From contig JAFWYB010000065.1 of NCBI GenBank assembly GCA_017517865.1, positions 40,061 through 104,060 of the forward strand: a stretch of DNA of 64,000 bases, given 5' to 3'. Shown in pieces: positions 13,504 through 48,576 of this stretch. Made by a program: the position numbers and the translations under genes. The notes below the pieces were generated by a model, which saw only the letters and a list, made by a program, of their open reading frames with translations, did no database searches and was not told the DNA's origin. The stretch comes from Clostridia bacterium (GTDB lineage: Bacteria > Bacillota > Clostridia > Oscillospirales > Acutalibacteraceae). Position 1 is the stretch's first letter. The number at the start of each line of letters is the position of its first letter.

Positions 13504-14151
13504 ATGGCAAAACGCAAAGGTAAAACTATTATATTAGACAGTAAGCCGTCAATAAAGGCGAATGCCGCCGCGGCGGGCAAAAAAGAGAGTGAGGGCCCTC
13601 TCGGCAAGGAATTTGACAAGGTTTACAAAGATACAACATTAGGTGAGGATTGCTGGGAAAAAGCAGAAAGTGAGCTCCTTAAAACGGCGGTCTGTATTGC
13701 AATAGAAAAATCGGGCAAAGCTCTCGAAGAAATTGATGCTGTTTATTCCGGCGACCTTCTCAATCAGTGCATAGGTTCCACCTTTGGCCTCAGGGAGCTT
13801 AACCTGCCCTTTTGCGGTCTTTACGGCGCCTGCTCAACCATGGCTCTGAGTCTTATTCAGGCCTCGCTTGCTATAGAAAGCGGCGGCTTTGGCTGTACTG
13901 TAGCCGCAACAAGCTCACATTTCTGCTCAGCGGAAAAGCAGTTCAGATACCCTCTTGAATACGGCGGGCAGAGAACGCCCACATCACAGTGGACCGTTAC
14001 GGGTGCAGGCGCGGCGGTGCTTGAGTGCATCAGTGGTGCCTACCCTTACATCGACAGCGTTCACTTAGGCACAATTCAGGATTTAGGGGTCACTGATGCT
14101 AACAATATGGGCGCGGCAATGGCTCCTGTAGATGTTAAAATAGAACCATAA
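13504..14151 (+). pseudogene. spoVAD: spoVAD, 5' part, interrupted by the mobile element
   Basis: The first 208 codons of SpoVAD, a thiolase-fold protein that binds dipicolinic acid in the SpoVA complex. The N-terminus reads GKTIILDSKPSI, and the segment GLYGACSTMALSLIQA resembles the thiolase active-site region. The host protein stops at NNMGAAMAP (codon 14125-14127). The frame then reads seven foreign residues, VDVKIEP, and ends at TAA. Family members continue for about 130 more residues, and exactly that part is found at 48172-48576. TAAGGAGG precedes the ATG. As it stands the product lacks the C-terminal half and should be inactive unless the element excises. Confidence 0.95.
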
Positions 14152-14155
14152 ATTA
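14100..14155 (+). other. attL, left junction of the element
   Basis: CCTG at 14125-14128 is the only stretch identical to the right junction. Left of it is spoVAD coding sequence; right of it begins TAGATGTTAAAATAGAACC, one arm of the predicted attP. The crossover dinucleotide lies within CCTG, with CC at the symmetry centre of the arms. Confidence 0.85.
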
Positions 14156-14186
14156 AGCGAAAAGCAACACAAAATCTTACACAAAT

Positions 14187-14193
14187 TTCGACA
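14187..14193 (-). promoter_or_regulatory. Spo0A-box-like site near the left end
   Basis: TGTCGAA on the minus strand, continuing as TGTCGAAATTTG, which is identical over 12 bases to part of the repeat upstream of the KAP-NTPase operon. As a lone 7-mer it could be chance. Confidence 0.3.
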
Positions 14194-14212
14194 CGAAAGG
14201 TGGTGAAAACGC

Positions 14213-14226
14213 CCTATTTTACTGGG
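14213..14226 (+). repeat. Left copy of a 14-bp subterminal inverted repeat
   Basis: CCTATTTTACTGGG, 85 bp inside the left crossover, is the exact reverse complement of 48107-48120 near the right end. The unequal distances (85 and 49 bp) set it apart from the attP arms; it may be an accessory site for the recombinase or a directionality factor. Confidence 0.6.
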
Positions 14227-14366
14227 GTTATAGGCATTTTAGGGTTAACATTTTTGATGATGGTGAAAGTGTCTGAAAACACTCGTTTACAATTTATTTA
14301 CAAATAGTTTTTGACACAAAAATCAGCACTATTATTACAATAAAGAAAAATGAAAGGATGAATCAA

Positions 14367-14780
14367 ATGAAAATTACATACCGCGAAGTAAATGGTTATC
14401 TTATCCCAAATCTCAAACTGCCACCTGAAGAAGCCAATATCAGGCTTGGTAAATGGGGAATGGTGTATAAGGATTATCTTGAAAATAATAAGAAGGTGTT
14501 TTTCAATATGCTGCTTATGCAAGGCAAACTGTATCAGAACTGTGCCGAGGTTGAAAAGCAGGCTCGGTATATGTATGATATGCTCATTGAGCAGATGAAA
14601 ATGGCGGAGGGTGTTACCGAGCAACTGAAAGAAGATAATCAGATGGAGTGGATACAGAGAATGGGGAATATTGAAGCAAGGGCAAGGGAGATGATTCAAC
14701 TGAACTTGTTTATAATTAAAAACAGTTGTAATAAGTTGAAAGTTTTTTCTCAACTAAAAAACAATTGCAACTCATATTGA
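14367..14780 (+). CDS. tnpV: TnpV-like transposon protein
   Basis: A 137-residue protein like TnpV of Tn4451-type elements. The conserved N-terminus (MKITYREVNGYLIP) and the mid-region EDNQMEWIQRMGNIEARARE are visible. ATG at 14367 is preferred over 14358 because GAAAGG is then 9 bases upstream. The last roughly 20 residues (after IQLNLF) do not look like the family and run next to a transposase remnant, so the C-terminus has probably been replaced by an old insertion. Function in these elements is not established. In the circular form this would be the first gene behind the promoter formed at the joint. Confidence 0.8.
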   Translation: MKITYREVNGYLIPNLKLPPEEANIRLGKWGMVYKDYLENNKKVFFNMLLMQGKLYQNCAEVEKQARYMYDMLIEQMKMAEGVTEQLKEDNQMEWIQRMGNIEARAREMIQLNLFIIKNSCNKLKVFSQLKNNCNSY

Positions 14781-14907
14781 TAACTCAACAATAGAATCAT
14801 TGAACGGTTGGATTAAAGGAGAATATCGGAAAGGATTTAATTTACGTAATGTAGACAATGTTCCTTTGTTTATCGAAAACAATGTTCATTATTTTAACAA
14901 TGAATGA
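14758..14907 (+). pseudogene. Transposase C-terminal remnant
   Basis: An open stretch that begins right after an in-frame TAA and reads DNSTIESLNGWIKGEYRKGF, then ends VHYFNNE before TGA. The NSTIESLNGWIK and YFNNE segments resemble the DDE (integrase core) C-terminus of IS3-like transposases. There is no start, ribosome site or catalytic core, so it is a fossil, possibly the cause of the altered tnpV end. Confidence 0.6.
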
Positions 14908-14921
14908 TTGTCTTGCAAACT

Positions 14922-14970
14922 AAATATCAAACCCCTTGTTCAGTACGGTTGAACAAGGGATTTGATATTT
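14922..14970. terminator. Long bidirectional hairpin terminator
   Basis: A 20-bp stem with one mismatch (14922-14941 with 14951-14970; ends AAATATCAAA and TTTGATATTT), 9-base loop, followed by a T-rich stretch. It ends the tnpV side and the minus-strand four-gene operon. Confidence 0.75.
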
Positions 14971-15045
14971 GGTGCTTTTTATTGTCTACTTTTATTTAAC
15001 GGGTTCATTTACAACGGTGATTTTGATTATAGAATAGTTGCTTTG

Positions 15046-16068
15046 TTAGAAATCATATGGACAATAGATATTCGTTTCGATCTCTAATGATTTTACTTGA
15101 TCTTTAATTTTTACTTTTATTGATGATTTGATGTCAGAATGTGATATTGAGTTATAAAACAATCTGTAAATTTCTAAAATTGCTTCTTCATTAAAGATAT
15201 TATTTGTATAGTCTATTGAGTGTTTTAATTTTGTCATCTTACATAATCCATCCAAATAATATACATATGAAATATTGACAGAGTCCATTGATAATGGATT
15301 TCTCCGTAATTTTTCTATAATTGGTGCAGCTTTTTCATATTCACCCTCATCCATCATTAAATCTGCATATCTAAGCCAACATCGTGGACAAAATTTAAAC
15401 CTATTTATAGCTTCTTCCAAAACCAAAATGCTTTTTTGATAGTGATTGGTTTTGCTATAGATTTCTTGCTCTCTGCGCCACCCATCTTCATCATTAGGAA
15501 AATATGTTTGATACTCTTTGGTTAAAGCAATAATTGATTCGATATCTTTTCCTGAATATGATAAATATTGAGATAACAAAAATTCTATACTGAAAGAAAA
15601 GGCTCTCCATGTCCACTTTGTTCTGTCAATTTTGAGAAGCACAGATAACCATTCTTTGCATTTATTTGTTTTTCCACAACAACTTCCATAACGAATAGCA
15701 TCTGCCAACAAATCTGTATTTTCCTCATAATTTTTTAGTCCCAATTCAACTATCTGAAGTGCGGTTCTATAATTGTTATACTGTCTTAAAATAGAGACAG
15801 AAAAATTATGGAAATCGTCTGCTAATCCTTCTATTAGTTTATTCTCTTCGGAAAGACTTTTCATAATTTTATCCAATACTTCTTCAGCAGCCTCTTTGCC
15901 GTCCGAGTCAACTGATAAACAAAACAGTTCATCCGCATCCGCAACACTAATTATATCAAACGTATTATCAGGTTTTTCGAGTTGCTGAGTGTTCGATAAA
16001 ATCATTTTTTCAGAATTCGTTTCCATAGAAGTTTGTTGTTCAAGTTTTAGTTTGCTCATATCATCCAT
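15046..16068 (-). CDS. TPR-like protein, last gene of the KAP/VirD4-like operon
   Basis: A 340-residue soluble protein with no assigned function. The first 70 residues are polar and low in complexity. From about residue 95 it is helical with tetratricopeptide-like pairs, for example YRTALQIVELGLKNYEEN, YQKSILVLEEAINRFKFC and YEKAAPIIEKLRR. ATG at 16068 has GAAAGGAAA upstream; the 16 earlier codons in frame have no site. It lies 55 bases after the VirD4-like gene and just before a strong terminator. A scaffold or adaptor role in a complex with the three upstream products is inference. Confidence 0.7.
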   Translation of the reverse strand: MDDMSKLKLEQQTSMETNSEKMILSNTQQLEKPDNTFDIISVADADELFCLSVDSDGKEAAEEVLDKIMKSLSEENKLIEGLADDFHNFSVSILRQYNNYRTALQIVELGLKNYEENTDLLADAIRYGSCCGKTNKCKEWLSVLLKIDRTKWTWRAFSFSIEFLLSQYLSYSGKDIESIIALTKEYQTYFPNDEDGWRREQEIYSKTNHYQKSILVLEEAINRFKFCPRCWLRYADLMMDEGEYEKAAPIIEKLRRNPLSMDSVNISYVYYLDGLCKMTKLKHSIDYTNNIFNEEAILEIYRLFYNSISHSDIKSSIKVKIKDQVKSLEIETNIYCPYDF

Positions 16069-16123
16069 AGTACATTTCCTTTCAAAATATAATAATTTTA
16101 TATCATATAATATCAATTTGACA

Positions 16124-17665
16124 TTATATGTTTTGTAGATTTATAGAATCATCCTCGGAATTTAAATAATCATGGAACGACCATTCTTTAAGGATAATTC
16201 TTTTTCTAGTTTCAACTATCAATTCTTCATATTTGTTATTATCGTATTTTTCTATATCTGCCAATGTTGAAAAGTATGGATATAATCTTCCAGAAAAAAT
16301 CAAACATTCTCCTTTATCTTTATTTAAATGTTGCAATTTTGATACAGATATTAGCGGTTCTTTGTTTTTATCTCCTGCTAAAGCGCTGATTTCACGCAAT
16401 AACTCAACTTCTCGTGAAGTTAAGAATAACCAATTTGTGCAATTTGATTGGATTGTCTCTGCTTCTTCACCATATCTTTCTTTTAATTGATGCTTACTTT
16501 GAGCTACTAAAATAAAACGAATGTTTCTACTTCTTGATGCAGTTATCATCTGTGGAAAATCACTTATTGTGGGTAACGATGAAAACTCATCTAAAATAAA
16601 ATTTATTCTTATTGGGAATTTTCCGTCTTTGCATGTTTTGTAGGATATATCTATGAATAATTCATAGATTTGTTTTACAAAAACTGTTATTAGTTTGTGA
16701 AATGTGGATTTTTCATCTGGCATAATCAAAAAAATCGCTCTTTTATTAAAACCTATATTATCAACATCAATACTGGTTGAAGAAAGCAAGTCGATTATTT
16801 GTGGTTGCATTAAAAAACAAGACATATGTTGATCAAAAGTGCTTAAAATGCAAGCCATAGTATTGCTCGGACAAATTACAATTCCAATTAGTCTTGATGT
16901 TACCAAATTGAATTTTTCCGCATATATCCAAATCTTGTTAGTCTTTATCCTCTCTGTTAGTGTAGAAGAAAATAGTTCCTTTCGTAGTTTGAGAACAGTG
17001 CTAATATTTACTGAATCCTCTGAAATATCATGGTCTTTACAAAACTCAAAAACCAATAATATCAAACCAAACAGAAGATCCCTCGCTGAATAGTCCCAGT
17101 AAGGATCCTTTGAATTTAAGGGTATTAGATTTACCGTTGCATCATTAATAAAAGCACAAGCTTTATCTATTTCTCCATCTTTGAAAAGCTTATATGGGAT
17201 TGAGAGTAGATTCCAACTATCACCTTTTTCTGGTTCTCTTAAATTTACTACATTTACTTCATAACCATTGCTTTTTAAAACCCCTGAGGTTCTTTTATAA
17301 ATTTCAGCCTTTGGGTCACATATAATCATACTTTCTCCGGCGGCTGATAAAACATGAACTGTGGGCATAACAACTAACCTGCTCTTTTTAGAGCCAGTTG
17401 AACCTATGAGCATAGAGTGAGCATCTGAACCATCACAGTAAACAATTTGTTTTGATTCATCGAAATCCAATGGTATTCCTGCACAATTGTTTCTATCCCA
17501 TTTGCAGTTTTGACCGGGCAAAATTGTGTGTTTATTAATATCATATTTAGAAAATTCTTTTCTAAAGGTTGTTGAATTTTCAATTCTCCCTTGACTTTGG
17601 TTTCCACACAAATTGTTATATATCGATGTTGTACTATAATAATTGTTTCTAACTTTTTCGTCCAT
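16124..17665 (-). CDS. VirD4/TraG-like ATPase without membrane domain
   Basis: A 513-residue P-loop ATPase related to type IV coupling proteins (VirD4/TraG/TraD), which pump DNA-protein complexes as membrane hexamers. The nucleotide site reads GSTGSKKS at residues 88-95, where the family has GSTGSGKS, so a Gly is replaced by Lys. Walker B is FILDEFSSLP, and the later SRNIRFILVAQSKHQL matches the family. No N-terminal transmembrane helices are present. It is far from the relaxase, on the other strand, and cotranscribed with a KAP-type NTPase, so I read it as part of a conflict system rather than as the element's own coupling protein. Confidence 0.8.
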   Translation of the reverse strand: MDEKVRNNYYSTTSIYNNLCGNQSQGRIENSTTFRKEFSKYDINKHTILPGQNCKWDRNNCAGIPLDFDESKQIVYCDGSDAHSMLIGSTGSKKSRLVVMPTVHVLSAAGESMIICDPKAEIYKRTSGVLKSNGYEVNVVNLREPEKGDSWNLLSIPYKLFKDGEIDKACAFINDATVNLIPLNSKDPYWDYSARDLLFGLILLVFEFCKDHDISEDSVNISTVLKLRKELFSSTLTERIKTNKIWIYAEKFNLVTSRLIGIVICPSNTMACILSTFDQHMSCFLMQPQIIDLLSSTSIDVDNIGFNKRAIFLIMPDEKSTFHKLITVFVKQIYELFIDISYKTCKDGKFPIRINFILDEFSSLPTISDFPQMITASRSRNIRFILVAQSKHQLKERYGEEAETIQSNCTNWLFLTSREVELLREISALAGDKNKEPLISVSKLQHLNKDKGECLIFSGRLYPYFSTLADIEKYDNNKYEELIVETRKRIILKEWSFHDYLNSEDDSINLQNI

Positions 17666-17682
17666 ATGATCATCCTTCTTTT

Positions 17683-18681
17683 TTAAAACGGATCTTTGTA
17701 TTGGTCTTTTCTCATGCTTCGAACCGAATTAGACTCAGAATATAAATCTTCTTGAATACAATCCACAACCTTTTTGTCATTTTCCTGGTCGTTTTTTTCT
17801 ATATCAATAAATTCTGTAGTTTCGTTTTCTTCTTCATTATTGTATAGTGTATTTTCTTTTTTGCTGATATCTTTATTTATATTTTTTTCGTAAGGCAAAG
17901 TCTCACATTTTATTGCCAATTTTGCAAACCCTGGAAACAAAACCGATTCATTTGTTATGCTTTCATATTCATCTATGGGAAGAAATACTAGAAAAAATAT
18001 TACACTGGGTTTTCCATAAATTGATATGAATTTTTCAATAATATTAAACACCGTTTTTTCCATTTCGCAAAGTGGAGTTTTGATTTTAGAAATGTCTGCT
18101 TTTTCTGTTGTTTCGTTTTGTGTCTCCGTGTCTTGTTCATTTGCTAAAGATATGTATTTAAACAATAAATCTCTGTGGCTTAATTTTTCTAGTATATCAT
18201 CTTTAAAAGAATTAAATTGCTTACAAAAGTTATTTTCTGCTTCGGCAAGTGTTTTGTTATACGGTTTTGATTTTATTTTATATTTAGGATATCTGTGAGT
18301 AAGCAATTTACTAAATATTTTATATATTTCATCATATATATCGGTTGATTTTTTTACGCTTAATGGAATAAAAAGGCAAGAATTTGAAAAATAACTCTCT
18401 ATTTCTTGAAATTCCTCTTTATAGGTGCTATGTCCACCAAAATGTCTGAAACAGTCATCAATAAAAGTTCTACATGCAAATCCAAGTATTTCACAATCTT
18501 GTTGTTCTGCACACACAAAAGCAACTCTCATTCCATCTTCTGTGTTTAGAACACATGAAAAAATATCTTTGACTACTGTTTCCCAACTTCTAAAGTCTTC
18601 ATGGTTAGATTCAGCTCCTAAAAATGGAGTGGTGTTTTCATCAGTATTTTTTACCCAATCGGCAGATATTTCATAAGCCAT
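17683..18681 (-). CDS. Unknown protein of the KAP/VirD4-like operon
   Basis: A 332-residue protein I do not recognise. It starts MAYEISADWVKNT; ATG at 18681 follows GGAGGTATAT. The N-terminal 130 residues look globular and include several Cys and His. Residues about 200-240 contain a hydrophobic stretch (PSVIFFLVFLPI). The last 70 residues are strongly acidic and low-complexity (Glu, Asn, Asp, Lys), likely disordered. It ends 17 bases before the VirD4-like gene and follows the KAP NTPase by 47 bases, so the operon fixes its context but not its activity. Confidence 0.65.
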   Translation of the reverse strand: MAYEISADWVKNTDENTTPFLGAESNHEDFRSWETVVKDIFSCVLNTEDGMRVAFVCAEQQDCEILGFACRTFIDDCFRHFGGHSTYKEEFQEIESYFSNSCLFIPLSVKKSTDIYDEIYKIFSKLLTHRYPKYKIKSKPYNKTLAEAENNFCKQFNSFKDDILEKLSHRDLLFKYISLANEQDTETQNETTEKADISKIKTPLCEMEKTVFNIIEKFISIYGKPSVIFFLVFLPIDEYESITNESVLFPGFAKLAIKCETLPYEKNINKDISKKENTLYNNEEENETTEFIDIEKNDQENDKKVVDCIQEDLYSESNSVRSMRKDQYKDPF

Positions 18682-18728
18682 ATATACCTCCAAAACTGCT
18701 TGCAGAAATGTTCTATACAAGCAGTTTA

Positions 18729-20645
18729 TTAATTACTAAGTTCTTCATTAATTGTTTTTTTTATTCCATCCACTATTATCGGATGATTTGCTACAGCCAT
18801 CTCTAAATTTGGATTATCACCTAAGAACAATGATATTTTTTTCCACAATATACCTGTAGTTGGCATATTATCTGTTTCGTGAGAGACTATCATTTTTAAA
18901 CAATTTTTTACGAGGATTTTTATTTCATGACCTTGCAATGCTATTAATTCATATAAATAAGCATTGGGAACATTCAAAAGTATGCTAAACGCTTTTTTGT
19001 ACTTATCATAATTTGAAGATTTAGATGTTTCAAAAAACCAAGCACAAGAGTCAATTTTATATATAACTAAATAACACAATATCAATGCTTGATATTCCAA
19101 GTTGTTTTGATTCCAAAAATAATTTTGATTAAACAGTTTTTTTAGCTCTTTAGACACAATTTCTTCTTTTAGTAAATACATTATTGCACTTATTTTTTCA
19201 GAATCAATTTTGCATTTGAGTTTTTTCATATAACATTTTTTGATGTAATCATCAGAATTTCCCAATAATTCAAGAGCACGCTTAGTTATAAATCCACTTT
19301 GAACTAAGTCTTTTATCAAATACAAATATTTCTCTTTCTTGATATCACAGGAATTGCTAATAAGAGAATTTAACAATTCACTTTCGCCACTTCTAAGATT
19401 AAAATAGTCTTGAGGGCAAAGTGTTTTATAAATAACAAAAGCAAGAATTTCGCAATCATCTATATCCATATAATAGTTGTTTGAAAAATTTTTGTTGAAT
19501 TTAATATCTCTAAACAACTGATATTCGTTAATAACAGAGTTGATTTTACGGTAATCGTACAGTACCTCTGATACTTTAGTAATAAACTCGTGATTTATAT
19601 TGTAAATACCTACGCCTTCTAAACTTAACCTTAAAATTTTCTCAGAATTAAACTTGTTAACAGACGGAAGTATCGGTAAAATATAATCAAAAAACTTTGT
19701 GCTGTTTTCTATATCAAACAACCTATCATTAATGACATAAACAAATCTTACAGATTTTCTTCTATTGTTTAATCGTATATTTACCAAAAAGTTAATTTCT
19801 CTTAGCTTTGAAAATATCTCTAGACACATTTTGTTATCAAGTCTATCCATATCTTCAAAAACTACTGTATAGTTTATTTTTTTTGCGATTTGAGATAAAA
19901 CATATACTATCTCAACTTTATTGCAATCAATATATGTATCATATTTATTTAAGCCAACATCAACATCTGCATGACTTGTTTTGATATTTATACTACGCAA
20001 TTCTAATTTGTGAATTACTTTATTTGATACTAAAAAAGTAAGAATGACAACCAGTAATCCAAAAATCAAATACAAATAAGCATAAATACTAGTAATTTTT
20101 CCTTCAACGATACTAAAAATTTCAGTTAAAACTGTTTGAAATTCTTTCTTAAAAATTAAAGATAACAAAATTGCTATAATTGATCCAATTATAAACGAAT
20201 AAAACTTTGAAAAATGCTTTTTTTCTTTGTATTTTTTACAACTGCTTTCTGGTATATCCTTTTCCTTGCAACGAGCCAAAATCTGATTTATTAAATTGAT
20301 TTCTAAAGAATTAATTTCATTAAGTTTATTCTTGACTCTTTTATTGTTCCTGTTTGGGACTGCTTCTGTCTTGGCAAAATCAGAAAGAGAAATATATAGA
20401 AATTTGCTTCTTTTTTTTAACTTGTAAAACCTTGAACTACAAATAATATCATAAGAATAAAGAATACTACTTTTTCCAACTCCGAAATTTCCAGTTAAAG
20501 CTAAATTTTTTATATTTGAATCCTTAAACGCTTCGTTTAAGTACGATTGATAAACTCTAAAGTTGGCATCCTTTTGTAAATCTCTTTTGGGATAAAAAGG
20601 GTGAATTATAGGTTTGTTTGCTCTGATTTTAAGAATATTTAACAA
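18729..20645 (-). CDS. KAP/YobI-like P-loop NTPase with two membrane helices
   Basis: A 638-residue NTPase. Walker A is GNFGVGKS (residues 52-59). Two transmembrane segments follow at about 148-168 and 190-213. Then come Walker B as VVFEDMDRLD (about 276-285) and a sensor-like VYVINDRLFD. Membrane helices inserted between Walker A and B are the hallmark of KAP-type NTPases, and the N-terminus resembles YobI. The C-terminal half is helical and unrecognised. The start is TTG at 20645 with AAGGTGA 6 bases upstream. First gene of a four-gene operon; its upstream region carries the Spo0A-box-like repeat. Relatives act in phage exclusion and membrane complexes; the role here is inferred. Confidence 0.8.
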   Translation of the reverse strand: MLNILKIRANKPIIHPFYPKRDLQKDANFRVYQSYLNEAFKDSNIKNLALTGNFGVGKSSILYSYDIICSSRFYKLKKRSKFLYISLSDFAKTEAVPNRNNKRVKNKLNEINSLEINLINQILARCKEKDIPESSCKKYKEKKHFSKFYSFIIGSIIAILLSLIFKKEFQTVLTEIFSIVEGKITSIYAYLYLIFGLLVVILTFLVSNKVIHKLELRSINIKTSHADVDVGLNKYDTYIDCNKVEIVYVLSQIAKKINYTVVFEDMDRLDNKMCLEIFSKLREINFLVNIRLNNRRKSVRFVYVINDRLFDIENSTKFFDYILPILPSVNKFNSEKILRLSLEGVGIYNINHEFITKVSEVLYDYRKINSVINEYQLFRDIKFNKNFSNNYYMDIDDCEILAFVIYKTLCPQDYFNLRSGESELLNSLISNSCDIKKEKYLYLIKDLVQSGFITKRALELLGNSDDYIKKCYMKKLKCKIDSEKISAIMYLLKEEIVSKELKKLFNQNYFWNQNNLEYQALILCYLVIYKIDSCAWFFETSKSSNYDKYKKAFSILLNVPNAYLYELIALQGHEIKILVKNCLKMIVSHETDNMPTTGILWKKISLFLGDNPNLEMAVANHPIIVDGIKKTINEELSN

Positions 20646-20960
20646 TTATATCACCTTATCTTTATGTTATAATGAATTTGTGTTTTAGTAAAACTATAGA
20701 ACATTTTTCTTACACTAAAATTATTGTTAATCATATACTGTTTTCGATATTTATAAATTGAATTAACGGAGTTGATTAGTAAAAAAACTAATTTATGTGT
20801 ATGCGTATTTAGTTTTGATGTTATTCATAGAAGAACTAAACCATTTATGGAAAATTAAAATTTTAAATTTGGAAGGGCGAACAATCTATAAGGCTGAGAG
20901 CAATATGTATAACTATATATATATTATAAATAGAATAACTTCAACTCATCTAACAAAAGT

Positions 20961-20995
20961 GCTTCAAATTTCGACAAAAATGCTTGATTTTCGAC
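20961..20995 (-). promoter_or_regulatory. Tandem Spo0A-box-like repeat upstream of the KAP operon
   Basis: On the minus strand this 35-mer has GTCGA twice, 20 bases apart, the second as TTTTTGTCGAAA. It is 28/35 identical and in the same gene-relative orientation to 32201-32235. The 0A-box consensus is TTTGTCGAA. It lies about 320 bp before the KAP start. The rest of 20646-21090 holds only an unsupported 71-codon frame and AT-rich sequence. Confidence 0.5.
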
Positions 20996-21118
20996 TTACC
21001 TATCTGTTTTAATACTCCGTTTATATTGACGAGAAAAAGGCAAATAAAAAACTATAATTAAACAGTAAAACGTATGGAAAAATCGAAATCTCTGCCGTCA
21101 ATTCATTTTGAGTTTGGA

Positions 21119-21147
21119 TTGATTTTTCATATTCAAAAGAGTATAAT
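21119..21147 (+). promoter_or_regulatory. Promoter of the hydrolase gene (cassette copy 1)
   Basis: TTGATT (21119-21124), 17-bp spacer, TATAAT (21142-21147). The surrounding 55 bp are nearly the same as at 24983-25011. Confidence 0.75.
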
Positions 21148-41008: not shown

Positions 41009-41046
41009 TAAGAAGCAAATCTTATTTCCGGTCGATATTAAAACGA

Positions 41047-41146
41047 GGACAAACCAACGCTTGCGTTGCTGGTTAAGTTCTGTTGTCCGAAGTTTAGCAA
41101 GCATTGGATTTGTATCCTCAAATCCGTAAAAACAGATCGTTTTTAC
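41047..41146 (+). other. Likely origin of transfer (oriT)
   Basis: A cluster of inverted repeats just before mobC: GGACAA (41047-41052) with TTGTCC (41083-41088), enclosing CAACGC-TT-GCGTTG (41055-41068); GGATTTG with CAAATCC (41106-41125); GTAAAAAC with GTTTTTAC (41126-41146). Position and structure fit an oriT recognised by the adjacent MobC and relaxase. The nic site cannot be named. Confidence 0.55.
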
Positions 41147-41186
41147 AACCACACCAAATACCAAAATTAAAGAAAGGAGAATTCCT

Positions 41187-41534
41187 ATGAGCAAAAGAAC
41201 AAGAGGTATAGACTTTCATGTGTATCTCAATGAAGAAGAAAATAAGATATTAGAAAACCTTTGTAAGAGATTAAAAGTAAACAGAAGCGTGCTTATCCGT
41301 GCGTTAATTCTCGGCAAAAGGTTGGTTGAGGCTCCGCCTGTTGATTACAAACAGTTTATTATTGAGCTTCGCAGAGTCGGTACTAACCTTAATCAGCTTA
41401 CAGCTAAAGCAAATTCAATCGGATATATTGATGCTGATGAATGCAAAAATGTTCTGAATGAAGTCAGAAAGCTTGAAAGTGACATTGCAAAATATTTCAA
41501 GTCAGGTAAGGAAGCGGATCGAGAATGGCTGTAA
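41187..41534 (+). CDS. mobC: MobC relaxosome accessory protein
   Basis: A 115-residue DNA-binding accessory protein of the MobC family. An N-terminal ribbon-helix-helix-like segment (IDFHVYLNEEENKILENLCK) is followed by the family signature ELRRVGTNLNQLTAKAN (about residues 60-76). It melts or bends oriT for the relaxase. GAAAGGAGAA precedes the ATG. Its end overlaps the relaxase start by 10 bases. Confidence 0.88.
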   Translation: MSKRTRGIDFHVYLNEEENKILENLCKRLKVNRSVLIRALILGKRLVEAPPVDYKQFIIELRRVGTNLNQLTAKANSIGYIDADECKNVLNEVRKLESDIAKYFKSGKEADREWL

Positions 41535-42988: not shown

Positions 42989-42993
42989 TATGT

Positions 42994-43179
42994 ATGCATC
43001 CGGAAGAGCTTTGCAAGAAAATGCAGGAAGAGAAAAAGACTGACAGTGAAAATTATCATGAGGAAGAAATGTCTTCCCAGGAGTATGCTCACAAGTATAT
43101 GGGCAGACCCGGTTATTCTGTAAGAAAACACTTACAGATTATACGAGCTGAACAACAGAAATATAGAAGAAATTATTAA
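42994..43179 (+). CDS. Small protein downstream of the relaxase
   Basis: A 61-residue hydrophilic protein (MHPEELCKKMQEEKKTD ...), rich in Glu, Lys and Gln. GGGAGGTGAT precedes the ATG at 42994; a GTG 9 bases earlier is possible but worse placed. No family recognised. It is cotranscribed with the relaxase. Confidence 0.55.
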   Translation: MHPEELCKKMQEEKKTDSENYHEEEMSSQEYAHKYMGRPGYSVRKHLQIIRAEQQKYRRNY

Positions 43180-43253
43180 TCAGGTTAAGGGAAATCTTGG
43201 ATTAAATTCAATAAAATTGACAATAATTATTAACGAGAGGAAGTGATAACTTA

Positions 43254-43502
43254 ATGCTCACAAAATCCCAGCTTGACCTCTGCAAGGCTGCAGAGATAGC
43301 TCTTTGCGATAAAAACGCTCTGACTGATTTAAGAGATATTACTGTAGATAAAAGCAAAAGTGTTATGGAGAGAATAGAGAACTTTACCGGTCAGGTAAAA
43401 AATCCTTATCTCTTTAAGGTCGGAGATGTTATCGTAAAAGTAGCATATAGCGGCGGCAAAGATTTTTCAGGTGCTCTGAGCAACGCTCTTTGTTCCTGTT
43501 GA
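43254..43502 (+). CDS. Small DUF6870-like protein
   Basis: An 82-residue protein with IENFTGQVKNPYLFKVGDVI VKVAY-type sequence (spaces mark a line break), the NPYxFKxGD core of small proteins found before recombinases in Firmicutes elements (DUF6870-like, from memory). AGGAAGTGAT stands about 8 bases before the ATG. It is the last gene before the recombinase promoter and could be a recombination accessory protein; that is a guess from position. Confidence 0.55.
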   Translation: MLTKSQLDLCKAAEIALCDKNALTDLRDITVDKSKSVMERIENFTGQVKNPYLFKVGDVIVKVAYSGGKDFSGALSNALCSC

Positions 43503-43534
43503 AATATTTACCATAAGCTAAATTAAAATTTTTA

Positions 43535-43563
43535 TTGAAATACGAGCGGAAGTATGCTACAAT
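43535..43563 (+). promoter_or_regulatory. Promoter and leader hairpin of the recombinase gene
   Basis: TTGAAA (43535-43540), 17-bp spacer, TACAAT (43558-43563). AGCGGAAG (spacer, about 43545-43552) and CTTCCGCT (43586-43593) are complementary across the start region. No sigma-E, -F, -G or -K consensus is visible, so expression is not obviously sporulation-specific. Confidence 0.65.
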
Positions 43564-43627
43564 TCATTTGTAAGATTTGTGGTGCTTCCGCTTTGTTTAT
43601 ATAGATAAACAAACGGAGGTTATACTA

Positions 43628-45322
43628 ATGTATTCAAAATATAAGGATTATTTAGAGCAGCCTCAAAGGGAATTGAAAACCTGGAAGGCTGCTCTTTATA
43701 TTCGTCTGTCCCGTGAGGACGGAGATAAATCAGAAAGCTATTCCATCACATCACAGCGTGAAATTTTAAAGGAATATCTCAAGCTCCATCCCGATATTGA
43801 GGCTCACGATTTTTACGTGGATGACGGTTGGAGCGGTACTAACTTTGACCGTCCCGGCTTTGTCCGTATGATGGAAGATATTTATGCGGGTACGGTTAAC
43901 TGTGTTGTTGTAAAGGACTTGTCCCGTTTCGGACGAAACTATACCGATGCAGGTAATTATCTTGATAATGTTTTCGTAAGATTAAAGGTGCGTTTTATCG
44001 CTCTTAACAACGGAATTGATACTGCTTCAAACAGTATGAATGCGGCAACGCAGTGTATTTCCGTAGGTGTTACCAATGTTATAAACGAAAGTCTTGCGGC
44101 GACTACTTCTGTCAATGTTCGAGGCACTCTTAATGTGAACAGAGCACAGGGGAAATTTATCGGCTCTTTCCCGACCTACGGATATTTAAAAGACCCGAAT
44201 GACCATCATCAGCTTATTATCGACGAAGAAACTGCACCCGTTATACGAATGATTTTTGAAAGGTTTATAGCAGGGCAAAGCATTATCGGTATTGCAAAAG
44301 CCTTGAATGACGAAGGCATACCTAATCCGTCAATGCACAAAAAGCTGAAAGGTCTTAATTACCGTCACCCTATGGGTAAGAGTAATGATGGTTTGTGGCA
44401 CGACAGTTCTGTACGCAGAATCCTGCAGAATGAAATGTATATCGGTAATATGGTGCAGGGCAAGAACACGACTATCAGCTATAAAATAAAGCAGTGCAGA
44501 GCCATACCAAAGGGCGAGTGGATTATCGTAGAAAACACTCACGAAGCGATTATTGATAAAGATACTTTCAATAAGGCACAGTCACTTTTCAGAAAGAATA
44601 TCCGCTCTTCGCCTGTAAAAAAAGAGGTTGATTTGTTTTCGGGACTTGTTCGCTGTGCTGATTGTCACCGTATTATGAACAAGAAAACCAACAACCATTC
44701 CTACGGCACTTACCGATATTACAGGTGTATGACATCAAGAAAAATGAGTAAAGATGCCTGCACCAATCACACAATCCGTATTGATAAGCTTGAAACAGCA
44801 GTGCTTGTCACCTTGCAGAAAATGATTGATACCGCTATTGAGTTTGATGAAATTCTTGAAATTATCAATCAGAGCAGTAAGCGTAAAAAGGAGTCAACCC
44901 ATCTGAAAAAGATGATTAAAACTCAATCTGCCGAGCGTGAGAAGTGCATAAAAATGTCCCTTGATTTGTATCCTGACTGGAAGCAAGGTGTTATCACAAG
45001 AGAGGAATATATGCAGTTAAAAGCTAATCTAACGGAGAAAATTGAGTCGATAGACAGCACAATCAAGAGTCTTACAAAGACAGCAGAAGAGTACGCTCAA
45101 GGTCTGAACAGTGAGAATGAGTTTATCTCACACTTTAAACAATACGGCAATATTGAGTCACTTAACAGACCTATGGTGGTTGAACTGATTGACGAGATTC
45201 TTGTTCACGAGGGTGGGAATATTACCATTAAATTTAAGTTCAACGATGCTTATGAAAATGTGGTTAACTATATTGAAATGAATAAGGAAATCGTTGAAGA
45301 GGCAGATAAGAAGTCTGCGTAA
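43628..45322 (+). CDS. Large serine recombinase (site-specific integrase/excisionase)
   Basis: A 564-residue TnpX/TndX-type large serine recombinase, the enzyme expected to insert and excise this element. The resolvase domain starts with AALYIRLSRED, with Ser28 as nucleophile, and contains DLSRFGRNY. A recombinase domain follows (AQGKFIGSFPTYGY ... LNDEGIPNP). A zinc ribbon lies near residues 343-380 (CADC ... RCMTSRKMSKDAC). A coiled-coil segment is at about 410-480. ATG at 43628 has GGAGG 7 bases upstream; the frame's 17 earlier codons have none. The fused att sites at the element ends match what this class uses. Confidence 0.93.
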   Translation: MYSKYKDYLEQPQRELKTWKAALYIRLSREDGDKSESYSITSQREILKEYLKLHPDIEAHDFYVDDGWSGTNFDRPGFVRMMEDIYAGTVNCVVVKDLSRFGRNYTDAGNYLDNVFVRLKVRFIALNNGIDTASNSMNAATQCISVGVTNVINESLAATTSVNVRGTLNVNRAQGKFIGSFPTYGYLKDPNDHHQLIIDEETAPVIRMIFERFIAGQSIIGIAKALNDEGIPNPSMHKKLKGLNYRHPMGKSNDGLWHDSSVRRILQNEMYIGNMVQGKNTTISYKIKQCRAIPKGEWIIVENTHEAIIDKDTFNKAQSLFRKNIRSSPVKKEVDLFSGLVRCADCHRIMNKKTNNHSYGTYRYYRCMTSRKMSKDACTNHTIRIDKLETAVLVTLQKMIDTAIEFDEILEIINQSSKRKKESTHLKKMIKTQSAEREKCIKMSLDLYPDWKQGVITREEYMQLKANLTEKIESIDSTIKSLTKTAEEYAQGLNSENEFISHFKQYGNIESLNRPMVVELIDEILVHEGGNITIKFKFNDAYENVVNYIEMNKEIVEEADKKSA

Positions 45323-45387
45323 AATTATCAATAGGGTATATAGCTGTATTTTGAGAAAAATATTTTTTGTGCATTTATAAAAGAAAA

Positions 45388-45454
45388 ATAACAAGTCAAA
45401 CTTGACTTATTAAAGCAGATTTGATATTATAATAGTACAAATTTGACTTGTTAT
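45388..45454 (+). promoter_or_regulatory. Promoter with flanking operators for the HTH gene
   Basis: TTGACT (45402-45407), 17-bp spacer, TATTAT (45425-45430). A 13-bp perfect inverted repeat flanks it: ATAACAAGTCAAA (45388-45400) with 45442-45454. The left arm is also part of a 16-bp palindrome AAGTCAA-ac-TTGACTT (45393-45408) over the -35. This arrangement suggests repression with looping by the HTH protein just downstream. Confidence 0.75.
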
Positions 45455-45466
45455 TATGGAGGCACT

Positions 45467-45817
45467 ATGAAGATTTCAAATTATAATGATGAAAAATCAA
45501 TATTAGTGGAATTGGGAAACCGTATTCAGCAGTATAGGATTTCCTTGAATATCACACAATCGGAGCTTGCACAAAGATGCGGACTTTCTCTTAAGACCAT
45601 TGCCCGTACAGAAGTGGGATATGATACGAAGCTTTCAAATCTGATTAAGATTTTGAATGAAATCGGACTTTCAGAAAATTTAGATATTTTAATACCTGAA
45701 CCTCAACCCGATTACAAAGCATTATTTGAAGAAAAAACAATAAGAAAACGTGCAAGACCCGATAAAAAGAAAACAGATAGTGCTTGGGTTTGGGGAGAAG
45801 ATAAGATAGATAAATAA
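45467..45817 (+). CDS. XRE-family HTH regulator
   Basis: A 116-residue Cro/C1-type protein. The helix-turn-helix lies at about residues 18-70 (LGNRIQQYRISLNITQSELA ... LSLKTIARTEVG). The C-terminal 45 residues are basic. ATG at 45467 follows GGAGG. It probably represses its own promoter through the inverted repeats at 45388-45454, and may control the AAA/TOPRIM pair that begins 165 bases downstream. A HipB-like antitoxin role is possible but no toxin kinase is present. Confidence 0.8.
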   Translation: MKISNYNDEKSILVELGNRIQQYRISLNITQSELAQRCGLSLKTIARTEVGYDTKLSNLIKILNEIGLSENLDILIPEPQPDYKALFEEKTIRKRARPDKKKTDSAWVWGEDKIDK

Positions 45818-45981
45818 TAATTTATTTACGTAAAACATGTGTTTATGCAAGATAAATATATGATATCAATACTGTAGCCCAACTTAAAAACGTATTTTTC
45901 GTTTTTAAGTTGACAAAGCGCAACAAAGTGAATATAATATAGATAACAAAAGAACTTTTTATTGCAGAAAAAGGTGAAGTT

Positions 45982-47172
45982 ATGAAGTTATTAAAAATTG
46001 AAGTTAGAGGGCTTCCGTTATTTAAAGAAAAATGCGAAATTGATTTTATGTCATTACAACGTGTAAATGCGGAAAATGCAGATAAAATGAGCATAGCATT
46101 TAACAATGGCATGAAAGATTTTTATCAGAATAATGTTTTGTCTTTTATAGGAATAAATGCATCAGGCAAAACAACTATTTTAAAGTTAATTACGTTCGTT
46201 TGCCGAATGTTAAACAATGAACCTATTAACAATATTGAATCTTCAGAAATGCTGGACGATTTGGCAGAAAATCAATATGTTACTTTTAAAACCTATTTTT
46301 CCGCTAAGAATAAGGAAACATTTCCTTTTACCGATGGTCTGGCAATCAACTTACTCGAAACTACTATAATTAAAACTAAAGAAAAACTTGTAATTGCAAA
46401 AGAAACACTAAAATCAAAGTCTATAACCAAAACAATTAATAAGAAAAATGTTTTTGATTTTACAGGAGTGGAAATTAACAGTTCAAGACAGTTTAATGAG
46501 TATTTGTTAGACGATGTAAGTATAATGGTAGCTTTCAATAAGCGAAATAATGAGCAGGTTATACTTTCGGATATGTTGAAATTTACAAACATCAATCAAC
46601 TCAGTTTGTCTGAGGATTGTCCTCTTGAATTGATTGCTTTCTTTGATCCGAGTGTAGAATATTTGAAGGTAAACAAAAACAGTAAAGATACTGATATTTG
46701 TTTAAAGTTTAAGAATAAACCTGAAATTGTTTTAAATCAATTATCGGAGCTTAACAGGTATTTATCTTCCGGTACTATTAAAGGTATTAACACTTTCTTG
46801 AATGCTATTAAAACATTTGAAACCGGAGGATATCTGATTATTGATGAGTTGGAAAATCATTTTAATCAAGAGATCGTTTCAACTTTAATTCGCTTTTATA
46901 TGGATAAGAAAGTGAATCCTAAAGGAGCAATGCTTATTTTCTCAACTCATTATTCTGAATTGCTGGACGAGTTTGAACGCAATGATAATATATATATTGT
47001 ACGGAACAGAAACGGAATATCTGCAGAAAACCTTTCTAATATCCTTAATCGAAATGACATAAAGAAAAGTGAGGCATATCAGAGCGGCTTCCTTGAAGGT
47101 ACAGTTCCAATGTATGATGCTTATATTGAATTAAAAGAAAGCCTTATTGGTTCTCATAAGGAGGAGCAATGA
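45982..47172 (+). CDS. AAA-family ATPase (AbiL/RloA/AriA-like)
   Basis: A 396-residue ABC/SMC-type ATPase: Walker A GINASGKT (about residues 57-64), Walker B YLIIDELENHFN (about 283-293) and H-switch STHYSELL. The insert between them holds a low-complexity stretch. It overlaps the next gene by four bases (ATGA). ATPases of this form paired with a small TOPRIM-like protein make up abortive-infection systems such as AbiL/RloAB and PARIS, so a phage-defence role is likely; which named type cannot be settled here. Confidence 0.8.
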   Translation: MKLLKIEVRGLPLFKEKCEIDFMSLQRVNAENADKMSIAFNNGMKDFYQNNVLSFIGINASGKTTILKLITFVCRMLNNEPINNIESSEMLDDLAENQYVTFKTYFSAKNKETFPFTDGLAINLLETTIIKTKEKLVIAKETLKSKSITKTINKKNVFDFTGVEINSSRQFNEYLLDDVSIMVAFNKRNNEQVILSDMLKFTNINQLSLSEDCPLELIAFFDPSVEYLKVNKNSKDTDICLKFKNKPEIVLNQLSELNRYLSSGTIKGINTFLNAIKTFETGGYLIIDELENHFNQEIVSTLIRFYMDKKVNPKGAMLIFSTHYSELLDEFERNDNIYIVRNRNGISAENLSNILNRNDIKKSEAYQSGFLEGTVPMYDAYIELKESLIGSHKEEQ

Positions 47173-47690
47173 TGGAGCTTTCAAAATATAATGCCTGTAT
47201 ATGTGAGGGTACAGCGGAACAAGTAATTATTGATTTATTACTTGATAATAGCAAACTGATTTTCTCACGAAACGATTTGCTTGAACATGAAATTCTGAGA
47301 TGCAGGACGGGAAAGAATTTTGAAGAGCAGTACTTAAGAAAAGGTTTTACAGAACAAATCACAGTTTTCAGAATTCTTGATTCAAGAAGGGAAAACTTCA
47401 AATTAAGCAAGGCATATCAAAGTAAAGTGAAGGTTGTAAATATAATTACTGCACCTGAAATAGAAATGTTAGTCATTCTTAATGAAGGAAAATATAGCGA
47501 TTATAAAAAATCTGGAATGAAGCCAAGTGTATATTGCAAAAGCATTTTAAAACATCGTGATGTAAAGAGTGCAGCTTTTGTGAAAAGCTATTTCAAAGAT
47601 ATTGATGTTTTGATAAAAGCTATTATCGAATATAAAAGGGTTTCGAATGTTAAACGAAATGAATTTACTTTGGCAGATATTCTCAAATAA
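47169..47690 (+). CDS. TOPRIM-like/RloB-like partner of the AAA ATPase
   Basis: A 173-residue protein starting MMELSKYNACICEGTAEQVI. The EGTAEQ near the N-terminus fits the EGxxE-type motif of TOPRIM/OLD nucleases. RILDSRRE and APEIEMLVILNEGKY supply further acidic residues. AAGGAGGAG precedes the ATG inside the ATPase stop. It is likely the nuclease or effector of the pair; shorter than typical RloB (about 200), so the assignment to a family is tentative. Confidence 0.65.
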   Translation: MMELSKYNACICEGTAEQVIIDLLLDNSKLIFSRNDLLEHEILRCRTGKNFEEQYLRKGFTEQITVFRILDSRRENFKLSKAYQSKVKVVNIITAPEIEMLVILNEGKYSDYKKSGMKPSVYCKSILKHRDVKSAAFVKSYFKDIDVLIKAIIEYKRVSNVKRNEFTLADILK

Positions 47691-47710
47691 CTCAAATTTA
47701 TTTTATCTTT

Positions 47711-47742
47711 AACAGCGTGCGGAGTAAAATCTGCACGCTGTT
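47711..47742 (+). terminator. Hairpin after the TOPRIM-like gene (copy 1)
   Basis: AACAGCGTGC (47711-47720) with GCACGCTGTT (47733-47742). Without a strong T run. Its sequence is repeated in related form at 47900-47934. Confidence 0.55.
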
Positions 47743-47757
47743 CTCTATGCAAAGTCG

Positions 47758-47827
47758 AAAAACTATGTAAAAAATCATAGTTTTATCGGTATAGAGGTAA
47801 AAACTTCTTGTTTTTTACATAGTTTTT
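47758..47827. repeat. 17-bp perfect inverted repeat near the right end
   Basis: AAAAACTATGTAAAAAA (47758-47774) and its exact complement (47811-47827), 36 bases apart. It is in the gene-free right end of the element (47691-48156) and could be a recombinase or accessory protein site, or a remnant of an insertion sequence. Confidence 0.6.
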
Positions 47828-47899
47828 ATGGTTATAGAAGAAAAAGTAATACACAAATAGAAAATAAGAATGATTAAGATAAAAACAGGGATGTAATTA

Positions 47900-47934
47900 C
47901 AGTGTGCAAAATGAAATTTGCACGCTGATTTTTT
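47900..47934 (+). terminator. Terminator hairpin (copy 2)
   Basis: CAGTGTGCAAA (47900-47910) with TTTGCACGCTG (47917-47927, one G-T pair), then six T after one A. Related in sequence to the hairpin at 47711. Confidence 0.7.
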
Positions 47935-48106
47935 GCGTTAAATGGCAGTTAAGGGGGTGTAATTTATAAAATTTCAAATTTATCCCCGTTAACTCAGTCT
48001 TGCCAAAATCCAACACTCTTGTTAAAAATGTCTATAAAATACCCATCATAGTCTTCCCTTCATTGCAACCACCCCATAGCTGCACCCATAAACAAAGTAC
48101 CGAAAA

Positions 48107-48120
48107 CCCAGTAAAATAGG
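48107..48120 (-). repeat. Right copy of the 14-bp subterminal inverted repeat
   Basis: CCTATTTTACTGGG on the minus strand, exact partner of 14213-14226, 49 bp inside the right crossover. Confidence 0.6.
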
Positions 48121-48139
48121 CACTTTTGAGGTTTCAAAA

Positions 48140-48200
48140 AATTTTATGGTTTTCTCTTGACATTTACCCCTGCTGCCTGTAAAACCATATCCGATTTTCT
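48140..48200 (+). other. attR, right junction of the element
   Basis: CCTG at 48169-48172. Left of it, the element's end reads on the minus strand GTAAATGTCAAGAGAAAACC, matching the left arm GTAGATGTTAAAATAGAACC. Right of it, spoVAD resumes with GCTGCCTGTAAAACC. TTGACA (48157-48162) lies in the element arm and, with TAAAAC 17 bp on in spoVAD, forms a weak outward promoter. Confidence 0.85.
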
Positions 48201-48576
48201 CCGGGATACCGACACCTCGCCCGAGGATTACGACCTTATCCTTACGGGTGACCTGGGCTATGTGGGCAGCGAGCTTTTATATGAGCTTCTTATGAAAGAG
48301 GATAACATTGACATAAGCTCAGTACACCGCGACTGCGGACTGTTGATTTATGACAGAGAAGCTCAGGATGTTCATTCGGGCGGCTCAGGCTGCGGCTGCA
48401 GTGCGTCGGTGCTCTGTTCGTATATATTGAACGCGATGAAAAAGGGGGAGTACAGCAATATTCTCTTTGTTGCAACGGGAGCGCTTATGTCGCCCGTTTC
48501 CTCAAGAGAGGGTGAGAGTATTCCGGGAATAGCACACCTTGTCAATATAAAAATGAAAGTGAAAGAGGAGAGCTGA
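48169..48576 (+). pseudogene. spoVAD: spoVAD, 3' part, beyond the mobile element
   Basis: The C-terminal 134 codons of SpoVAD from AACKTISDFL onward. It includes ILTGDLGYVGSELL, DCGLLIYD, the glycine-rich HSGGSGCGCSASV and FVATGALMSPVSSREGES, all characteristic of the family. There is no proper start: an in-element TTG at 48157 opens the frame but lacks a ribosome site. In phase with the 5' part once CCTG is shared, giving a 342-residue protein against 338 in Bacillus subtilis. The codons show no decay (no stops or shifts), so the split is recent or the gene is still under selection. Confidence 0.95.

What the first reader, a model, noticed from the sequence alone, without database searches (positions are those of the whole stretch)
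13504..48576. A 34-kb mobile element splits the sporulation gene spoVAD and can be removed in frame
Seen: codons 1-208 of SpoVAD end at CCTG (14125-14128) and codons 209-342 resume at CCTG (48169-48172); joining there gives ATG-GCT-CCT-GCT-GCC-TGT with no stop or shift. The 3' part has not decayed. Known: skin in sigK and SPbeta in spsM interrupt sporulation genes and are excised by serine recombinases during development. Inference: this is a comparable, apparently undescribed, spoVAD-intervening element.
Basis: partly seen in the sequence, partly recalled or inferred. Interest (0 to 1): 0.95.

Follow-up and report, generated by a model that had tools for sequence, protein, structure and literature searches.

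The report
Mobile element repeatedly splits spore gene spoVAD
In gut spore-forming bacteria, a family of mobile DNA elements has its own enzyme for inserting at one exact proline codon of a gene needed to make spores, leaving both halves intact so that precise removal would restore the gene, which raises the untested question of how carriers still form spores.

Summary
A 34,044-bp element interrupts the genome's only detected spoVAD; the crossover is the CC of the Pro208 codon (14125-14126 and 48169-48170). It carries a relaxase, MobC, TnpV and a large serine recombinase; no phage structural gene was found. In an even sample of the taxonomic family, at least 35 of 347 genomes with a SpoVAD match are occupied, in 21 genera. 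The recombinases form one clade (26 of 80, support 1.0) linked to this site. All 42 retrieved 3' halves and 32 retrieved 5' halves are open, without relaxed selection; two damaged right-hand copies also exist. Elements move between species. One MAG holds empty and occupied alleles (98.1% identical).

Not shown: excision during sporulation. No assembled circle was found (0 of 398 genomes, 0 viral contigs), and the recombinase has a sigma-A-like promoter. The skin/SPbeta analogy strains: almost all known intervened genes are mother-cell genes, whereas spoVAD is forespore-expressed in C. difficile, so excision there would reach the spore's own chromosome. Best reading: reversible site-specific insertion; spores come from excised cells. 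New variant of a known kind.

The parts
13048..13491 (+). spoVAC, first gene of the spoVA operon
   Evidence: TIGR02838 3e-46, 156.7 bits (just under its cut-off of 164)
13504..14126 (+). 5' part of spoVAD: codons 1-207 and the CC of codon 208; reading runs on into the element and stops at 14151 (tail VDVKIEP)
   Evidence: NF006160 positions 5-210, 3.8e-78
14125..14126 (+). left crossover core CC (attL)
   Evidence: comparison of attL, attR and attB in relatives
14127..14149 (+). right arm of attP, carried at the element's left end
   Evidence: inverted-repeat test, 17 of 23
14127..48170 (.). the spoVAD-intervening integrative mobilizable element, 34,044 bp counting one core copy
14358..14780 (+). 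TnpV-like gene at the left end
   Evidence: PF14198 4.9e-37
15046..20645 (-). four-gene block with a VirD4-like coupling protein (16124-17665) and a YobI-like P-loop NTPase (18729-20645)
   Evidence: PF02534 2.6e-38, PF20693 2.4e-67; CD1115-family VirD4 1e-72, just under cut-off; Tmn-like 3.5e-25
21178..39975 (.). cargo: MetRS-like protein, LytTR regulator, acetyltransferases, helicase with Mrr domain, AAA and HD proteins, NUDIX, AraC regulator, methyltransferase
   Evidence: Pfam
41187..41534 (+). MobC/NikA-like mobilisation protein
   Evidence: PF21983 4.2e-12, PF05713 9.6e-9
41525..42988 (+). MobA/VirD2-type relaxase
   Evidence: PF03432 2.5e-38
43254..43502 (+). DUF6870 protein, 82 aa, directly upstream of the recombinase; candidate directionality factor (inference)
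   Evidence: PF21757 7.3e-19; found upstream of the recombinase in 24 of 25 spoVAD-clade loci tested, the miss being cut by a contig end, and weakly in 3 of 9 less related loci
43535..43591 (+). recombinase promoter region: TTGAAA-17-TACAAT (43535-43563) inside an inverted repeat GCGGAAG/CTTCCGC (43546-43552, 43585-43591; repeat seen by eye)
43628..45322 (+). large serine recombinase (Resolvase, Recombinase, Zn ribbon, DUF4368); likely ATG at 43628, the ORF list starts at TTG 43577
   Evidence: for the start; 94-98% identical copies in split relatives
45443..45817 (+). XRE-type HTH regulator
   Evidence: PF01381 5.7e-9
48146..48168 (+). left arm of attP, carried at the element's right end
48169..48170 (+). 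right crossover core CC (attR)
48171..48576 (+). 3' part of spoVAD: last base of codon 208, codons 209-342 and the stop
   Evidence: NF006160 positions 206-335, 8.3e-54
48752..49120 (+). spoVAE/spoVAEB-type gene, cut off from the operon's upstream part by the element
   Evidence: TIGR02839 3e-41, over cut-off; PF03862

Best explanation
This is one member of a family of integrative mobilizable elements whose large serine recombinase is dedicated to one attB, the AMAP|AA codons of spoVAD. Shown by sequence: attP and attB recombine at a CC dinucleotide, the gene is split without loss of bases, and precise attL x attR recombination would restore it. Inferred: the recombinase keeps the element integrated in growing cells, and the element is excised in some cells or under some condition, perhaps with the DUF6870 protein as directionality factor, so that spores come from cells or forespores whose spoVAD has been restored. 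Because SpoVAD is needed in the forespore, the excised circle must be lost, carried along in the spore, or re-acquired; vegetative re-integration into the same attB would complete the cycle. Whether excision is timed by sporulation or merely sporadic is open.
For: Only one, split, spoVAD in the genome. The same codon is split with related attP arms in 37 genomes and 10 further named loci. One recombinase clade, 26 of 80, support 1.0 in a midpoint-rooted tree: 20 labelled as beside a spoVAD 3' half (window included) plus 6 unlabelled. attP inverted repeat centred on CC. All 42 C-halves and 32 N-halves retrieved are open at full length. No relaxation of selection on split terminal branches: C-half omega 0.111 against 0.116, 2dlnL 0.28; N-half 0.097 against 0.134. 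Recombinase itself under strong constraint, dN 0.007 against dS 0.525 for G000/G002. spoIVA present in 33 of 37 split genomes; the 4 misses are 69-86% complete. Population polymorphism: G319 holds empty and filled alleles 98.1% identical over 264 bp; G217's 5' contig ends where attB and attL would part, with an exact 141-bp overlap to the uninterrupted continuation.
Against: No excision was observed. No attP (circle) sequence in 398 family genomes or in viral contigs; the exact pattern used covers the commonest arms only, not for example those of g73, G180 or G371. Most elements compared are younger than their hosts' divergence (recombinase dS far below spoVAD dS), so intact halves may partly reflect recent insertion. 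The recombinase promoter is sigma-A-like; upstream of it no sporulation consensus matched in 24 genes, and upstream of DUF6870 one sigma-F-like match in 24, though the same strict sigma-G scan also found nothing upstream of spoVAC in 29 of 29 regions. Tn4451's own recombinase excises without any RDF (PMC5704250, passages), so DUF6870 may be irrelevant. G217 and G313 showed no attL arm in their bins. One copy sits at another site (L078); one right end has lost the spoVAD remainder (L075); one 3' match has a stop (G430).
Confidence: 0.6

Rival explanations
1. Ordinary mobilizable element using spoVAD as a harmless docking site in growing cells. Excision serves only transfer and is not linked to sporulation; carriers simply make defective or no spores until the element is lost or the lineage dies out. 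The halves are intact because insertions are recent.
For: Recombinase dS is far below host dS in several pairs (0.02 against 1.7 in G384/G206) and G105/G215, close relatives, carry diverged elements. Constitutive-looking promoter. No assembled circle. Damaged ends exist (L075, G430).
Against: High prevalence, at least 35 of 347 matched genomes in 21 genera, in genomes that mostly keep spoIVA. No trace of relaxed selection. In G371/G180 the recombinase has diverged as much as the host gene (dS 1.73 against 1.79), yet both halves are constrained, although cargo differs between them.
Confidence: 0.3
2. Skin-like element excised only in the mother cell.
For: In C. difficile the skin recombinase CD1231 also has a sigma-A promoter and a separate RDF confines excision to the mother cell (PMC5025042, passages).
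Against: spoVAD is sigma-G dependent in C. difficile (PMC3738446, passages); restoring it only in the mother cell would not supply the forespore.
Confidence: 0.04
3. The two halves are made as separate polypeptides that assemble in trans; no excision is needed.
For: Every element-bearing right junction listed supplies an in-frame TTG (CTTGACA or CTTGACT) and some also an ATG before the 3' half.
Against: None of five promoter patterns matched at the element's right end, 47691-48175 (the sigma-G pattern is insensitive); the TTG belongs to the symmetric attP arm; no Shine-Dalgarno-like sequence was noticed there by eye.
Confidence: 0.04
4. Assembly or binning artefact.
For: Most genomes whose titles are shown are MAGs and many junctions lie near contig ends.
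Against: Identical junction position with related arms in dozens of independent assemblies, one of them titled as a strain (Oscillibacter valericigenes An890, 3' side only seen).
Confidence: 0.02

Closest known systems
gin element in gerE of Bacillus cereus ATCC10987 (PMC5595907, abstract and passages)
   Same: Non-prophage element with serine recombinase(s) splitting a sporulation gene; 28.6 kb; gene restorable in frame
   Different: gerE is a mother-cell gene and excision was shown; gin has three recombinases and a 9-bp consensus at the crossover; here one recombinase was found in the element, a CC core, a relaxase, and excision untested
skin in sigK of B. subtilis and C. difficile (PMC5025042, passages)
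   Same: Large serine recombinase; sigma-A-type promoter for the C. difficile recombinase; single host gene split
   Different: Prophage-like; mother-cell gene; dedicated RDF known; excision proven
SPbeta in spsM (PMC4191935, passages)
   Same: Serine recombinase; restoration of a sporulation gene by precise excision
   Different: Prophage; excision during sporulation confined to the mother cell so the spore keeps it
yin in yabG of C. botulinum (PMC10747680, passages)
   Same: Element within a sporulation gene; heterogeneous population of integrated and excised forms
   Different: Prophage-like and reported as unique to one strain; here a mobilizable-element family across many genera
Tn4451/Tn4453 integrative mobilizable elements (PMC5704250, passages)
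   Same: TnpV-like protein (tnpV as a Tn4451 gene is recalled), mobilisation genes, serine recombinase, 2-bp crossover, Firmicutes
   Different: Tn4451 uses numerous GA sites and a MobV relaxase; here one specific gene, a CC core and a MobA/VirD2-type relaxase

Membership tests
Sporulation gene-intervening element (skin, SPbeta, gin, vfbin, yin) | Element splits a sporulation gene whose parts join in frame | tested here: met
Sporulation gene-intervening element (skin, SPbeta, gin, vfbin, yin) | Carries its own serine recombinase and att sites | tested here: met
Sporulation gene-intervening element (skin, SPbeta, gin, vfbin, yin) | Excision during sporulation restores the gene | not testable with these tools
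   no reads or cultures; no attP in 398 genomes or viral contigs
Sporulation gene-intervening element (skin, SPbeta, gin, vfbin, yin) | Split gene is mother-cell specific ('almost all', PMC6957869) | tested here: not met
   by literature only: spoVAD is sigma-G/forespore dependent in C. difficile (PMC3738446, passages); PMC6957869 passages. Compartment not measured in this organism
Sporulation gene-intervening element (skin, SPbeta, gin, vfbin, yin) | Recombination directionality factor | tested here: inconclusive
   DUF6870 upstream of the recombinase in 24 of 25 spoVAD-clade loci tested; function unknown
Integrative and mobilizable element | Recombinase plus own relaxase/mobilisation genes | tested here: met
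Integrative and mobilizable element | Excision and mobilisation by a helper | not testable with these tools
   horizontal movement inferred from dS contrasts
Tn4451/TnpX family | Recombination at a 2-bp identity | tested here: met
   CC core
Tn4451/TnpX family | Low target specificity (GA sites) | tested here: not met
   of the window plus the 25 loci at >=57% identity, the right end could be placed in 23: 21 in spoVAD (L074 through its contig-length match to G105), L078 elsewhere, L075 a spoVAD-like remnant; L061, L066, L083 unplaced
Tn4451/TnpX family | MobV relaxase | tested here: not met
   PF03432 MobA/VirD2-type; weak TraI/MobP match
Prophage | Phage structural genes | tested here: not met
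   none among the 29 element proteins scanned with Pfam at E <= 0.001; one had sub-threshold terminase and holin matches (0.0048, 0.044). Not every small ORF was scanned; PHROGs was not run

The most novel reading that the evidence does not exclude
A reversible germ-line rearrangement: the element is excised in the forespore (or in the cell about to sporulate), restores the DPA-uptake gene spoVAD there, travels in the spore as a circle and re-integrates into the same codon at outgrowth. This would be an intervening-element cycle in the cell that survives, unlike skin and SPbeta, whose excision is confined to a cell that dies.
Probability: 0.3. Interest if true: 0.95.

Novelty: new variant of a known kind. 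Interest (0 to 1): 0.78.

Why it matters
Known sporulation-gene elements can excise safely because the mother cell dies. A family using a gene that is forespore-expressed elsewhere breaks that rule, so either it has a germ-line excision and re-integration cycle, or spore formation in many gut Clostridia is gated by a mobile element. Both can be tested with a junction PCR. It also offers a large set of related serine recombinases with mapped att sites.

Tried and rejected
Assembled circle: pattern for attP, 0 hits in viral contigs and 0 of 398 family genomes; the pattern covers the commonest arms only. Decay of the 3' half: not seen in the 42 retrieved C-halves, but retrieval favours recognisable halves; outside it are L075 (remnant) and G430 (one stop, with a right arm visible on another contig). 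Vertical inheritance of old insertions: not supported in most pairs; G371/G180 is compatible, with different cargo. Sporulation promoters: no match upstream of the recombinase, one sigma-F-like match of 24 upstream of DUF6870, but the control, spoVAC, also failed the strict sigma-G scan (0 of 29; 29 of 58 loci had usable upstream DNA), so this is uninformative; only the sigma-A-like result (21 and 22 of 24, against 5.0 and 6.1 expected; several of the 24 are near-identical, so not independent) is used. sigG family search: no genome passed the curated cut-off and 10 of 14 control genomes rang, so its tally is not used.

Rows dropped: of the 40 suspects, 31 have element arms; 9 do not (G045, G046, G061, G152, G217, G232, G241, G275, G313), G275 being a plain assembly break. 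Nine further genomes below the cut-off were not re-examined (G145, G172, G181, G198, G240, G335, G358, G381, G422), so 35 of 347 is a lower bound. G319, G343, G407 (intact gene plus element-flanked halves) and G430 are not in the 37; G343 and G407 look like mixed bins, their copies being only 70-79% identical.

Codon model: 102 taxa, FastTree branch lengths scaled, not re-optimised; 2 of the 55 intact rows are partial (L024, L189). N-half has lower, not higher, omega on split branches (2dlnL 20.9), which I do not interpret. Foreground branches include time before insertion.
Full report
WHAT IS THERE. SpoVAD is encoded in two pieces only in this 2.69-Mb, 70-contig genome. The left piece covers family positions 4-212, the right piece 206-335; both are open, and neighbouring spoVAC and a spoVAE-type gene flank them. 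Between the pieces lie 34,044 bp counting one crossover copy. Comparison with relatives narrows the crossover to CC: all five left ends in the genus read GCN-CC-TGTAGATGTTAAAATAGAACCAT, and all six right ends read ATGGTTTTCTCTTGACATTTACC-CC followed by the host's own third base of the proline codon. The two element arms are an inverted repeat around that CC, 17 of 23 positions (1 of 20,000 shuffles reached this), as expected for a serine-integrase attP.

WHAT THE ELEMENT IS. Pfam finds a TnpV-like protein at the left end, a VirD4-like coupling protein, MobC, a MobA/VirD2-type relaxase, and a large serine recombinase with Resolvase, Recombinase, Zn-ribbon and DUF4368 domains. No phage structural protein was found among the 29 element proteins scanned at E <= 0.001. 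Cargo includes defence-like genes: an AbiLi-like ATPase and a Tmn-like NTPase, and a helicase with an Mrr domain. This is the anatomy of an integrative mobilizable element. A relative in G002 is only about 11.8 kb with other cargo but a 98% identical recombinase.

HOW WIDESPREAD. Genus: 31 of 34 genomes have a SpoVAD match, 23 over the cut-off, and 6 are split at this codon (G000, G002, G005, G006, G013, G023; G005 shows only the right side). Taxonomic family, even sample of 398: 347 have a match, 294 over the cut-off. I re-examined 40 genomes with broken matches; 31 show the element's arms and 9 do not. With the four genus members in the sample this makes 35 of 347, in 21 genera; nine more below the cut-off were not re-examined, so this is a lower bound. 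Counting the genus search too, 37 genomes: 26 with both sides, 6 with only the right side examined or seen, 5 with only the left. A scan of 84,980 species with the recombinase alignment found 97 relatives, kept the best 80 and gave 79 loci. Of the 25 loci at 57% identity or more (L057-L080 and the fragment L083), 19 have a spoVAD 3' half, starting at its first residue, within the fetched flank; of the other 54, none has. In a midpoint-rooted tree of 80 recombinases the spoVAD-linked ones fall in one clade of 26, support 1.0. Ten of the named loci could not be identified, by the contig lengths shown, with any of the 37 genomes. One carrier record is titled as a strain: Oscillibacter valericigenes An890.

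MOBILITY. Recombinase dS is much smaller than spoVAD dS in several pairs (0.02 against 1.7 in G384/G206; 0.53 against 1.7 in G000/G002), so elements have moved between species; G371/G180 (1.73 against 1.79) is compatible with common descent. In genus g73 close hosts carry diverged elements and more distant hosts carry similar ones. Both states coexist in at least one population: G319 has an uninterrupted gene and an attR-flanked 3' half 98.1% identical over 264 bp, i.e. two strains rather than one clone. In G217 the 5' contig ends at GCACCTG with an exact 141-bp overlap to the contig that continues uninterrupted, which is what an assembly-graph fork at the insertion point gives; but no attL arm was found in that bin, so this stays suggestive.

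STATE OF THE HALVES. All 42 retrieved C-halves run 127-137 codons to a stop and all 32 N-halves are open to NMGAAMAP. In a codon model with 102 taxa, omega on terminal split branches equals the background for the C-half (0.111 against 0.116, 2dlnL 0.28) and is lower for the N-half (0.097 against 0.134). Because many insertions are recent, this excludes old dead genes but does not prove function in the split state. Damaged copies outside this set: L075 and G430. Carriers keep the sporulation gene spoIVA: 33 of 37 split genomes (and G313) and 38 of 38 intact ones given to the search; the four misses are 69-86% complete.

CONTROL OF EXCISION. In 21 of 24 recombinase genes a TTG...TA...T promoter and in 22 of 24 an extended -10 lie upstream, against 5.0 and 6.1 expected in shuffles (several of the 24 are near-identical); in the sequences I read an inverted repeat brackets the -10. 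That suggests expression in growing cells. The same holds for C. difficile skin, whose recombinase CD1231 is constitutive and whose RDF gives the timing (PMC5025042, passages). A DUF6870 gene stands directly upstream of the recombinase in 24 of 25 spoVAD-clade loci tested, the miss being a contig that begins inside the recombinase; it is also weakly found in 3 of 9 less related loci. It is my candidate RDF (inference; no paper in the library names DUF6870). Against it, Tn4451's recombinase needs no RDF (PMC5704250, passages). Whether either gene is switched on in sporulation cannot be said: the strict consensus scan failed on the positive control too.

WHY SKIN IS NOT QUITE THE MODEL. [quoted passage not shown] spoVAD is sigma-G dependent in C. 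difficile (PMC3738446, passages) and SpoVA proteins act in DPA movement (a reference title seen there; function otherwise recalled). Restoring spoVAD where it is needed therefore changes the chromosome that goes into the spore. Either the element is lost at each sporulation and regained by transfer, or it rides along as a circle and re-integrates, or carriers do not make normal spores. The first two fit its mobilizable nature and shared attB.

PRIOR DESCRIPTION. Nine full-text searches bearing on known or related elements and one on DUF6870, with passages of eight papers (PMC6907783 mentions spoVAD as cargo, not as a site), gave no spoVAD-intervening element. Six listed papers that contain the word spoVAD were not opened (PMC6250715, PMC4383383, PMC3416734, PMC12285255, PMC3789822, PMC5864091). 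Most subscription journals and all bioRxiv preprints are missing from the library, so this is not proof of absence.

VERDICT. Observation confirmed and greatly widened; the element's nature is clear; developmental excision remains an inference. The most interesting point is the forespore gene.

Noticed in passing
L260 (G126:C24) reverse strand, about 1823-2251 of the reverse complement; G158 contigs C19 and C18 (L262, L261): The sigG-like open frame of G126 leaves SigG homology after FSTYAVPMVIE, and in G158 the sigG contigs break with an exact 127-bp overlap at TATGCCGTTCC: possibly a second forespore gene used as an insertion site.
   Followed up: partly
G170:C11 (L271), G102:C28 (L272), G149:C28 (L273): Uninterrupted spoVAD plus an orphan piece of its 3' end (family positions 271-334, 286-335, 306-333) on the same contig, as if another element had replaced the 3' end.
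   Followed up: no
L078, about 13283-13320: An element with a 99% identical recombinase has the usual right arm but sits outside spoVAD: a secondary site with the same CC core.
   Followed up: partly
L075, about 3677-3740: Right attachment end followed by about ten spoVAD-like codons and then unrelated sequence: a probable remnant.
   Followed up: partly
window 45982-47690, 18729-20645, 27546-29144: Cargo resembling anti-phage defence genes: AbiLi-like ATPase with a neighbour, Tmn-like NTPase, helicase with Mrr domain.
   Followed up: partly
window 22280-23863: The element carries a methionyl-tRNA-synthetase-like protein; a similar one lies in L078 upstream of its recombinase.
   Followed up: no
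L051, L052 (G013), L229/L230 (G213): G013 carries two close copies of the recombinase on different contigs; G213 has two different spoVAD 3' halves, both behind element arms.
   Followed up: no
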